Shown here: positions 5,074 to 31,960 of the stretch, piece by piece
Layout of the letters: every line of letters begins with the position of its first letter
Numbering within the stretch: the first letter of the stretch is position 1
Source of the DNA: Aneurinibacillus soli
GTDB lineage: Bacteria > Bacillota > Bacilli > Aneurinibacillales > Aneurinibacillaceae
Length of the DNA stretch: 64,000 bases
Reading direction: 5' to 3'
NCBI RefSeq assembly: GCF_002355375.1
Contig: NZ_AP017312.1
Span: 2,683,001 to 2,747,000, forward strand
The notes under the pieces: model-generated
What the model was told of the DNA's origin: nothing
Databases searched by the model: none
Seen by the model: only the letters and a program-made list of their open reading frames with translations
Made by a program: the position numbers and the translations under genes

Positions 5074-5190
5074 ATTTATTCCTCCCCATTAGTAGATTAC
5101 GTTTAATTTTCTTATGATAAATAATTGTAATACATGGATAAGGTGTTCCTGTACTATATATGTGCAGAATTTGTTAATTTTTCTTAATTA

Positions 5191-10460: not shown

Positions 10461-11834
10461 TTAGCTTGCTATTCTTTTCTCAGAAGCAGTTTCTTTCTCC
10501 TCCTGTAGAAAACGTCTTGTTTCCATGACAATGACCCCGCTTAATCCAATCAATCCGATTAAGTTCGGAATTGCCATCAATCCATTCGCAATATCAGCGA
10601 ATGTCCACACCATCCCAAGTTTTAAATTCGCGCCCACCGTAATCATGACCACAAAAATATACCGATAATAGCGAACAGCTTTTGGACCGAACAAATACTG
10701 GACACACTTCTCTCCATAATAAGACCAGCCAAGCATCGTAGAATACGCAAACAACACGATGGCAATGCCAAGAATCATACCGCCTGTACTGCCGAATACA
10801 GATTGAAACGCGAGTGTTGTTGCTTCTACCCCTGTTTTACCTGAATCCCAGGCACCGGTAGTAATTAATACGAGAGATGTAATAGTGCATATGACAAACG
10901 TATCAAGAAACGTTCCTGTCATTGATACAAGTGCTTGCTTGGCCGGCACATCCGTTCTTGCGGCTGCGGCTGCAATCGGTGCACTTCCGAGTCCGGCTTC
11001 ATTGGCAAATACACCACGTGCCACCCCGATTTGGATCGCGGCGGCCACACCTGCCCCAACAAATCCACCGACAGCTGCTGTACCGTTAAAAGCTCCAGAG
11101 AAAATAAGTCCAAACGCTGTTGGAATTTGATCAATATGATAAAAAATAATAATTAACCCGGCAATCACATAAAACAGAGCTTTTACCGGAACGAAATAGC
11201 CAGTTACTCTCCCGATTTTCTTAACCCCGCCCAGAATAACGAGCGCCGTAAATATAGACATCAGGATGCCGCTTGCAAGCGGAGGGATCGAAAAGTTAAT
11301 TCGCATCGCCTCTGCAACCGAGTTGCTTTGTACCATGTTCCCAATCCCGAAAGAAGCAGTAGCACCAAAAATCGCGAATAAGACAGCCAGCCATTTTTTC
11401 TTGAGGCCGTACTCCAGATAATACATCGGACCGCCAGAGTATTCCCCGTTTTCCCCTTTAATTCGATATTTTACCGCAAGAATGGCCTCGGAATATTTCG
11501 TAGCCATCCCGAACAAAGCCGTCATCCACATCCAAAATACCGCACCCGGGCCACCAATCGATACGGCTGTAGCAACCCCGGCGATGTTCCCCGTCCCAAT
11601 CGTTGCAGCCATGGCGGTCATCAGTGCCTGAAAGTGACTGATGTCCCCAGCCGTAGACCCGTCCTGTGATTTCCCAAACGCCAGCTTATGGGCGGCCCAT
11701 AGCTTGACGAATTGCAGTCCGCGCAAACGCACAGTAAGCAGGATGCCTGTGCCTACCAGAAGTACCAGTGTAGGCAATCCCCATACGTAATGATTAATTA
11801 CTTCTAAAGCTTTACTTACCGTCTCCATCTCCAT
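10461..11834 (-). CDS. sodium:alanine/glycine symporter (AGCS family)
   Basis: 457 residues with about 11 hydrophobic segments. Family signatures include TAMAATIGTGNIAGVATA, GGPGAVFWMW, EYSGGPMYYLEYGL and GVFANEAGLGSAPIAAAAA. AGCS proteins import alanine or glycine with Na+. The upstream tandem glycine riboswitch points to glycine as substrate, with uptake induced to feed glycine use or export excess. Start at the first ATG, behind AAAGGGG; an internal ATG two codons on is also possible. Confidence 0.93.
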   Translation of the reverse strand: MEMETVSKALEVINHYVWGLPTLVLLVGTGILLTVRLRGLQFVKLWAAHKLAFGKSQDGSTAGDISHFQALMTAMAATIGTGNIAGVATAVSIGGPGAVFWMWMTALFGMATKYSEAILAVKYRIKGENGEYSGGPMYYLEYGLKKKWLAVLFAIFGATASFGIGNMVQSNSVAEAMRINFSIPPLASGILMSIFTALVILGGVKKIGRVTGYFVPVKALFYVIAGLIIIFYHIDQIPTAFGLIFSGAFNGTAAVGGFVGAGVAAAIQIGVARGVFANEAGLGSAPIAAAAARTDVPAKQALVSMTGTFLDTFVICTITSLVLITTGAWDSGKTGVEATTLAFQSVFGSTGGMILGIAIVLFAYSTMLGWSYYGEKCVQYLFGPKAVRYYRYIFVVMITVGANLKLGMVWTFADIANGLMAIPNLIGLIGLSGVIVMETRRFLQEEKETASEKRIAS

Positions 11835-11930: not shown

Positions 11931-12155
11931 TTCCTGTCGCTTGTCTCTGTCCTTTTACCTGAGAGATTATCTGCTATGGCGCAGATTTGCTCCTTCGGTG
12001 CTCTGTATCCTCCACGCCACTTGCGGGGCAGGAGGGAGTCTCTCCAGAGATTCGTCCCCATGCAGTTCTACTTGTTATCCAAGACCTGAGAGTTTCAAAG
12101 CTGTCCGACCAGCTTCTTGCCCCATCGGTAGATCAATTGATCTTCTCCTGTATGG
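11925..12155 (-). ncRNA. tandem glycine riboswitch
   Basis: Read leftward, the second aptamer shows the hallmark segments GGAGAGACTCCCTCC, ACCGAAGGAGCAAATC, AATCTCTCAGGTAAAAGGAC and AGAG at the end. A first, less canonical aptamer precedes it (about 12155-12060) with ACCGATGGGGCAAG and AACTCTCAGGT. This is the gcvT-type glycine riboswitch in cooperative tandem form. It ends in a terminator and lies upstream of an AGCS amino-acid symporter, a known genetic context for this RNA. Confidence 0.93.
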
Positions 12156-12233: not shown

Positions 12234-12262
12234 TTGCTCGATTTCGTTAAAAATGATAAAAT
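12234..12262 (+). promoter_or_regulatory. sigma-A promoter of the CPA2 antiporter leader
   Basis: TTGCTC (-35, 12234-12239) and TAAAAT (-10, 12257-12262) are separated by 17 bp. Initiation is predicted around 12269, giving a leader of roughly 135 nt before the antiporter start. Confidence 0.55.
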
Positions 12263-12268
12263 AATTAC

Positions 12269-12356
12269 ATAATTTAATGCATGGACCTCGGAGGAGCCTG
12301 TCAAACACGGGATTGTTCTATTCTTTTTTAGAGCCTGTGTTTCACAGGCTTTTTTT
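12269..12356 (+). ncRNA. unidentified leader RNA with terminator and competing pairing
   Basis: AGCCTGTG (12332-12339) and CACAGGCT (12343-12350) form an 8-bp stem with a 3-base loop followed by TTTTTTT, a strong terminator. An upstream copy of GAGCCTGT (12294-12301) could pair with the same 3' arm, and can also pair locally (CCTGT with ACGGG). That gives mutually exclusive structures, as in attenuators and riboswitches. I do not recognise it as a known class. A 16-codon reading frame starts at the ATG at 12281 and includes two Cys codons, but it has no ribosome site. Confidence 0.6.
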
Positions 12357-12406
12357 GTGTTTTTTTAGCTTACTTTCACAAACTATAACTGAAAGGTGGA
12401 AAACGA

Positions 12407-15694: not shown

Positions 15695-15714
15695 TTGTAC
15701 ATAGATACGGCTCT

Positions 15715-15877
15715 CTCAAGGGTGTTGGCTCATCCCCTAATGAAAGGGGGTGAGGCCCATGACAGTATATGAAGCATTATCTTTGATGATTGGTGGTGGC
15801 ATGCTTGTCGCTACGATCTTCATTGCAGTATTTACGGCTATTACTGTCATGAATAAAGAAAAATAGACACCCTTGAG
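15715..15877 (+). promoter_or_regulatory. long-range 5'-3' complementary arms in the toxin mRNA
   Basis: CTCAAGGGTGT (15715-15725, 5' leader) is perfectly complementary to ACACCCTTGAG (15867-15877, starting right after the stop codon). In type I toxin mRNAs such as bsrG and txpA, pairing of the 5' and 3' ends helps hide the ribosome site; the same is likely here. The leader also contains CCCCTAATGAAAGGGG around the ribosome site. Confidence 0.6.
15759..15866 (+). CDS. BsrG-like small membrane toxin (type I toxin)
   Basis: 35 residues. The start MTVYEALSLMIGGGMLVA and the end VMNKEK match the size, hydrophobic core and basic tail of the putative holin-like toxins; B. subtilis BsrG also begins MTVYE. 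One membrane helix spans about residues 7-31. The ribosome site AAAGGGGGTGAGG precedes the ATG. Such peptides depolarise or disturb the envelope when the antisense RNA antitoxin is absent. The locus is flanked by an ISL3-type remnant, which fits acquisition by transfer. BsrG itself is prophage-borne; no prophage genes are seen here. Confidence 0.85.
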   Translation: MTVYEALSLMIGGGMLVATIFIAVFTAITVMNKEK

Positions 15878-15956
15878 TGTTTGGGAGAACAACAGGGAGT
15901 CTATTTTCTGTAACTAATCCATATTGAGCCGCCCATTTAGAGGGAAGGTCTATTGT
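15870..15956 (-). ncRNA. candidate antisense antitoxin RNA (3'-overlapping)
   Basis: On the minus strand TACAAT (complement of 15950-15955) could be a -10, giving an RNA that starts near 15945 and overlaps the toxin 3' region and coding end. This is the usual arrangement for type I antitoxins such as SR4. The -35 is weak and the antisense terminator was not located, so the RNA is an inference from context. Confidence 0.4.
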
Positions 15957-15960
15957 ACAT

Positions 15961-15998
15961 GACCGCTTTGGTGTTACCAGCACCAGGCGGTCTTTTTT
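15961..15998 (+). terminator. terminator of the toxin mRNA
   Basis: GACCGC and GCGGTC close a stem with inner pairs GGTG and CACC, followed by TTTTTTAG. It ends a predicted mRNA of about 300 nt, in line with type I toxin messages. Confidence 0.75.
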
Positions 15999-31683: not shown

Positions 31684-31960
31684 CAAAAAACCCGCCCCTA
31701 TGACTAGGGACGGGTTCACCCGCGGTACCACCCTGGCTTCTATCGATGACAAACCGTTCATCAATAGCACTCAGCAACGTACAATCATACGCGTTCTTTT
31801 TAACGGCAGAAACCCGTTCAAGCTTACTCGTATTCAGCTTGACTTCTCGGAGAGGATATTCGGCTGTGAACTGAACACCGGCTTTCAGCAACGACCGGCT
31901 CTCTGGGGAACAGACTCACAACGTACTTGTTCTCGTCATCGAATTTGTGTGCTTTTGTTA
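31684..31960 (-). ncRNA. T-box riboswitch (isoleucine)
   Basis: The 14-nt T-box core AGGGTGGTACCGCG is at the complement of 31721-31734, followed by a terminator stem (AACCCGTCCCT with AGGGGCGGGTT) and TTTTTT at 31685-31716. In Stem I the sequence GAATATCCTC holds an ATC (complement of 31855-31857) that suits an isoleucine specifier. Uncharged tRNA-Ile should pair at both sites and allow read-through into ileS. Confidence 0.92.

What the first reader, a model, noticed from the sequence alone, without database searches (positions are those of the whole stretch)
12234..12406. Possible new riboswitch or attenuator controlling a CPA2 antiporter
A 17-bp-spaced promoter is followed by a leader of about 85 nt that ends in a perfect 8-bp terminator. 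The sequence GAGCCTGT occurs twice, so the 3' arm ACAGGCT can pair with either copy; the two pairings exclude each other. The 5' part GACCTCGGAGGAGCC is compact and could be a ligand-binding fold. I cannot match it to a known RNA class. An alternative is a short leader peptide (ATG at 12281) with two Cys codons.
Basis: partly seen in the sequence, partly recalled or inferred. Interest (0 to 1): 0.75.

Follow-up and report, generated by a model that had tools for sequence, protein, structure and literature searches.

The report
Widespread leader RNA of sodium-pump genes
The short stretch before this sodium/proton antiporter gene belongs to an uncatalogued family of RNA switches, found in front of sodium-exporting transporters in many Gram-positive bacteria, that probably turns them on when sodium or alkaline stress builds up.

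Summary
The leader is real, and it is one member of a large RNA family that Rfam 15 does not hold. A 14-nt core, GGAGGAGYCUGUCA (window 12290-12303), forms the 5' arm of an intrinsic terminator. The same core plus terminator occurs in 164 non-redundant leaders, mostly from Bacilli, with some from Heliobacteria and Negativicutes and one Chloroflexota MAG. About 94% of 178 downstream genes are cation transporters: CPA2/NapA, NhaD-like, CPA1, MrpA, DUF1646, NhaA, TrkH. These are the gene classes of the Na+ and Li+ riboswitches, yet no Rfam model hits the leaders and the Na+ model RF03071 is rare in Bacilli. A covariance model built without the window finds the window leader at 46 bits. Best reading: a transcription attenuator (ON switch). 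The invariant 5' arm is sequestered, by direct ion sensing or by an unknown factor, which blocks the terminator. However, both of its mutually exclusive pairings end at the same U-run, so they are two terminator shapes, not an on/off pair. The leader peptide is not supported. The RNA family is well supported by comparison; signal (Na+, Li+, H+) and sensor (RNA or protein) are inferred and untested.

The parts
12234..12262 (+). candidate promoter: TTGCTC (12234-12239), 17 nt, TAAAAT (12257-12262); start of transcription inferred near 12269
   Evidence: Sequence; weak -35, 8/12; promoter block conserved in sister species G006; -10-like box in 102 of 163 family leaders
12290..12303 (+). invariant core GGAGGAGCCTGTCA = 5' arm of the terminator and presumed sensor site
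   Evidence: 13 hits in 15 genomes of the order vs 2 for the reversed control; 115 of 399 Bacilli genomes; 5' arm invariant while its 3' partner varies; orthologues vary only at core positions 3, 8 and 12
12290..12355 (+). long terminator hairpin: 12290-12301 with 12344-12355 and 12303-12311 with 12334-12342
   Evidence: MFE -30.7, z -4.5; covariance model not built from this sequence hits 12290-12357 at 46.4 bits, E 2.7e-13 in the window
12297..12311 (+). alternative small 5' hairpin CCTGT-CAAAC-ACGGG that leaves the local terminator free to form
   Evidence: Sequence; not tested alone
12332..12356 (+). local terminator AGCCTGTG-TTT-CACAGGCT + T7, exclusive with the long hairpin
   Evidence: second copies of the arm also in L014, L019, L021, L088
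12407..13561 (+). NapA-like CPA2 Na+/H+ antiporter controlled by the leader
   Evidence: PF00999 E 6e-74; TIGR00932 CPA2 above cut-off; best solved relatives 5BZ3/4BWZ Na+/H+ antiporter E 2e-53 vs KefC 1e-22; DD motif in all 61 CPA2 proteins behind such leaders

Best explanation
The leader is a cis-acting transcription attenuator that keeps Na+/H+ antiporter genes off by default and works as an ON switch. Without the signal, GGAGGAGYC pairs with a downstream GGYUYYUUUU arm and RNA polymerase stops after about 40-90 nt. When the signal is present, GGAGGAGYCUGUCA(CC) and the hairpin behind it (AAGGG-NNNN-UWUG-YCUUU) are held in another fold, so the 5' arm cannot complete the terminator and the antiporter is transcribed. 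The most likely signal is raised cytoplasmic Na+ (or Li+/alkaline pH), most likely sensed by the RNA itself in the manner of terminator-embedded riboswitches. Shown here by comparison: family, terminator pairing, gene set, conservation. Inferred: ON direction, signal, and direct sensing.
For: Core plus terminator recurs in 164 non-redundant leaders; about 94% of 178 downstream genes are cation transporters (77 NhaD-like, 69 CPA2/CPA1, 18 MrpA, 2 DUF1646, 1 NhaA, 1 TrkH). The same gene classes sit behind proven Na+ and Li+ riboswitches (PMC9337991, PMC9646797). Arm pairs are kept in about 98% of cells over 162 leaders; core position 8 U pairs with A in 5 and C never does. Inner stem sequences differ between leaders but stay complementary: own -19.2 vs swapped -10.9 kcal/mol. 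The 5' arm is invariant in paired and unpaired contexts while the 3' arm drifts by wobble, as expected if the single-stranded 5' arm is read by a sensor. A hairpin at core positions 17-22/31-36 appears in both leader types and excludes the compact terminator.
Against: No stable antiterminator helix could be found in the compact type: the P2 hairpin is weak there (pair probability about 0.2, z about -3 without correction for relatedness). No ligand or expression data exist. The invariance of the core could equally reflect a protein or other factor. The covariation statistics on the type B alignment are modest. Some leaders carry a second, unrelated strong terminator (L107, L212) that such a switch would not open.
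Confidence: 0.55

Rival explanations
1. Protein-dependent attenuator: an unidentified RNA-binding antiterminator (or terminator-stabilising protein) recognises GGAGGAGYCUGUCA in single-stranded RNA and responds to Na+/alkaline stress, in the manner of LicT, HutP or PyrR.
For: A short linear invariant site of 14 nt on one arm only is typical of a protein footprint; the core is invariant across structural contexts; an extra upstream element TG[AC]ATA in 48 of 164 leaders vs 2.7 expected could be a second contact.
Against: No candidate gene was seen linked to the few loci read in full; the site would have to be kept with its protein over Bacilli, Heliobacteria, Negativicutes and one Chloroflexota MAG.
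Confidence: 0.3
2. DNA operator: the 14-mer is a binding site for a transcription factor just downstream of the promoter; the hairpin is secondary.
For: Strict sequence conservation of a non-palindromic site near the start of transcription.
Against: The site is the 5' arm of a hairpin followed by a U-run in all 164 leaders (automatic in 156, by eye in 8), and pairing partners co-vary.
Confidence: 0.06
3. Leader peptide attenuation from an ATG at 12281 (MDLGGACQTRDCSILF).
For: The ORF exists; present as well in the sister species' near-identical leader.
Against: No conserved frame, start or codon pattern: 66 of 164 leaders, all three frames.
Confidence: 0.02
4. Plain terminator or repeat that merely insulates the gene from upstream transcription.
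For: The element is a good intrinsic terminator.
Against: A 14-nt sequence constraint and the transporter specificity are not needed for insulation; copies per genome are 1-3, so it is not a dispersed repeat.
Confidence: 0.05

Closest known systems
Na+-I riboswitch (DUF1646 motif; Rfam RF03071 'Sodium')
   Same: Leader of kefB/napA-type, DUF1646 and other Na+-linked genes; transcription terminator in the leader; ON switch (PMC9337991).
   Different: No similarity in sequence or model: its examples begin GGTTGGG...TTTCAAG; the Rfam scan finds none in the leaders; found in 6 of 300 Bacilli genomes against 115 of 399 for the new core.
Li+-I/Li+-II riboswitches (nhaA-I, nhaA-II) and the Na+-II variant
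   Same: Control nhaA, nhaD and related antiporter genes (PMC9646797).
   Different: No Rfam match to any family in the leaders at E <= 1.
Terminator-embedded riboswitches: HMP-PP (thiS motif) and guanidine-IV
   Same: A single terminator hairpin whose conserved nucleotides are thought to form the aptamer; ligand binding blocks the terminator; ON switch (PMC8632094).
   Different: Different genes and sequences; ligand here unknown; conserved nucleotides lie mainly on the 5' arm.
Protein-controlled terminators (LicT/SacY RAT, HutP, PyrR)
   Same: A conserved RNA site overlapping the 5' arm of a leader terminator (general knowledge).
   Different: No Rfam match of any kind to the leaders; comparison otherwise from general knowledge.

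Membership tests
The new leader family described here (model R1) | Score against a covariance model built without the window sequence | tested here: met
   46.4 bits, E 2.7e-13 in the window; 1.7e-11 for the genome
The new leader family described here (model R1) | Core GGAGGAGYCTGTCA as 5' arm of an intrinsic terminator upstream of a monovalent cation transporter | tested here: met
Na+-I riboswitch (RF03071) | Match to the Rfam covariance model | tested here: not met
   No hit in the window leader, in 20 leader loci, or in the genome G000
Na+-I riboswitch (RF03071) | Selective Na+ binding | not testable with these tools
   Needs in-line probing
Li+ riboswitches (nhaA-I, nhaA-II) | Match to an Rfam covariance model | tested here: not met
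   No Rfam family at E <= 1 matches the leaders; the two models were not run one by one
Riboswitch (any class) | Direct ligand-dependent change of the RNA | not testable with these tools
   No experiment available
Terminator-embedded riboswitch architecture | Conserved nucleotides within a terminator hairpin itself | tested here: met
   architecture described in PMC8632094
Leader-peptide attenuator | Conserved short ORF overlapping the terminator | tested here: not met
   66 of 164 leaders, three frames

The most novel reading that the evidence does not exclude
A new class of alkali-ion (Na+ or Li+) riboswitch with a terminator-embedded aptamer of about 40-55 nt, the main Na+-responsive RNA of Bacilli and many times more common there than the Na+-I class.
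Probability: 0.4. Interest if true: 0.9.

Novelty: new variant of a known kind. Interest (0 to 1): 0.78.

Why it matters
How Gram-positive bacteria sense cytoplasmic Na+ is largely unknown: the Na+-I paper states that only a single bacterial protein had been shown to sense Na+ selectively and regulate genes, and expects many additional Na+-sensing control factors to await discovery (PMC9337991). This family supplies a concrete, widespread candidate before the main Na+ exporters of Bacilli (NapA, NhaD-like, Mrp), small enough to be tested by in vitro transcription in one experiment. If it senses ions directly it adds a minimal Na+ aptamer; if not, it leads to an unknown RNA-binding regulator of salt and alkali tolerance.

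Tried and rejected
Rfam at gathering and at permissive thresholds: only chance microRNA/sRNA hits. Leader peptide: no conserved frame. Perfect-complement small RNA: the 14-mer and its complement occur once in the genome, in this leader; at up to 2 mismatches 56 places against 25 for the control, none examined further. G-quadruplex: fewer than four regular GG tracts in most leaders, by eye. Processive antitermination through tandem terminators: only 4 of 153 leaders scored two terminators with a strict scan, so not general. Viral scan with the 16-mer gave 24 stretches, not followed. A stable antiterminator in the compact type was looked for and found only as a weak hairpin. Literature: no paper in the library holds the 14-mer; searches on riboswitch plus antiporter terms returned only the known Na+/Li+ classes.

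Full report
Observation. The leader reads as described. GAGCCTGT lies at 12294-12301 and 12331-12338, and ACAGGCT closes the stem at 12344-12350. The strand 12269-12360 folds as one long hairpin (12290-12301 with 12344-12355, 12303-12311 with 12334-12342), -30.7 kcal/mol, z -4.5, none of 200 shuffles as stable. The alternative is the local 8-bp terminator 12332-12350. Both end at the same T-run (12350-12356), so both are terminator shapes. The -35 box is poor; the promoter was not listed at 9 of 12 matches. Rfam has no family here.

Discovery of the family. A 92%-identical leader lies in the sister species; orthologues with about 75% protein identity keep only GGAGGAGYCTGTCA and a terminator. 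A leader hit in another genus stood before a different transporter (L012). The 14-mer gave 13 hits in 15 genomes of the order against 2 for the reversed control, each of them a leader with a terminator, and was present in 115 of 399 Bacilli genomes. A scan of about 85,000 species with core plus terminator arm gave 105 stretches: Paenibacillus, Cohnella, Bacillus and relatives, Kurthia, Alicyclobacillus, Sporolactobacillus, Salinicoccus, and outside Bacilli Heliobacterium, Pelosinus, Sporomusa and one Chloroflexota MAG. By a rough estimate of mine fewer than one chance match is expected for that pattern. 27 of 111 bare 14-mer hits lacked the terminator or lay in genes; I removed them by eye.

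Unbiased check. Of the 48 closest CPA2 orthologues, found by protein, 34 have the exact core 88-189 nt upstream and 7 a core with one or two changes. The changes fall at core positions 3, 8 and 12, so the invariance is not an artefact of the exact search. A covariance model from 28 type B leaders, window not included, finds the window leader at 46.4 bits and gives hits in 93 of 200 Bacilli genomes; the weak ones (below about 32 bits) were not checked and will include ordinary terminators.

Structure. In 162 non-redundant leaders the nine 5' arm positions pair with the 3' arm in about 98% of cells; the 3' arm varies between C and U opposite G at two positions (U in 59 and 51 of 162), core position 8 is U-A in 5 and never C-A. 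118 leaders are compact (type A); 44 have the arm further down (types B, C). In the latter the inner stems are rebuilt: own arms -19.2 kcal/mol against -10.9 with arms of other leaders. Type B has a consensus GGAGGAGYCUGUCACCAAGGGAUNNNUAUGYCCUUGGURACAGGCUCYUUUUU with 90% of cells paired; the covariation counts there are modest because the core hardly varies. A hairpin over core positions 17-22/31-36 is strong in type B and weak in type A; in type A it excludes the terminator. An upstream TG[AC]ATA is enriched, 48 of 164 against 2.7.

Genes. 178 downstream genes cluster into 77 NhaD-like (PF03600), 69 CPA2/CPA1 (PF00999), 18 MrpA, 2 DUF1646, single NhaA and TrkH, and a few others, among them UbiB genes (one read on, and followed by a CPA gene) and one AI-2E/UPF0118 protein; a member of that last family is a reported Na+(Li+)/H+ antiporter (PMC7221264). 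Gene calls are mechanical longest ORFs, and Pfam was run on representatives only. All 61 CPA2 proteins carry the DD motif, and the window protein is closest to the NapA-type Na+/H+ antiporter structures. By general knowledge DD marks Na+-type, electrogenic exchangers. Na+, Li+ or alkaline stress is therefore the likely signal.

Comparison with the known. Na+-I, Na+-II and the Li+ riboswitches control the same gene classes (PMC9337991, PMC9646797) but are different RNAs: no Rfam match and unlike sequences. RF03071 is found in 6 of 300 Bacilli genomes. The closest architecture is the terminator-embedded riboswitch (HMP-PP, guanidine-IV; PMC8632094): one terminator hairpin carrying conserved nucleotides. 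It works like these by anatomy; whether it is a riboswitch at all is not testable here.

Mechanism and limits. The 5' arm is kept letter by letter, whether its inner part is in the loop (type A) or in a stem (type B), while its partner only has to pair. That asymmetry is what an arm read in single-stranded form by a sensor would show. I take direct ion sensing as somewhat more likely than a protein because of the depth of conservation, the shared gene set with ion riboswitches and the shared second hairpin; this is inference. The novelty claim rests on Rfam 15 and on an open-access library only; work in other journals could exist.

Noticed in passing
window 11937-12057 (-): Glycine riboswitch aptamer upstream of a Na+:alanine/glycine symporter gene (10461-11834, -), divergent from the antiporter; 60 bits.
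   Followed up: partly
window 15698-15990 (+): BsrG-like RNA (type I toxin-antitoxin transcript family), 102 bits.
   Followed up: no
window 31703-31948 (-): T-box leader, 130 bits.
   Followed up: no
L243, oriented position 5105 (reverse strand): Core plus terminator right before nhaA in a Chloroflexota (Oscillochloris) MAG; horizontal transfer, wrong binning or an ancient element.
   Followed up: partly
L013, L015 from position 1501: Three terminators in a row between promoter and antiporter gene (two further GGAGCC..GGCTCC hairpins), as if duplicated.
   Followed up: partly
L025 (1501), L106, L214, L216: Leaders before genes that are not transporters (sigma-factor-like, hydrolase-like, dehydrogenase-like, glycoside-hydrolase-like); named from the translated start only.
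   Followed up: no
164 leaders, about 17-20 nt upstream of the core: Enriched TG[AC]ATA of unknown role between the start of transcription and the core.
   Followed up: partly
type A leaders, after the terminator stem: The U-run is interrupted in a conserved way (UUUUUGYCUUUUUU).
   Followed up: partly
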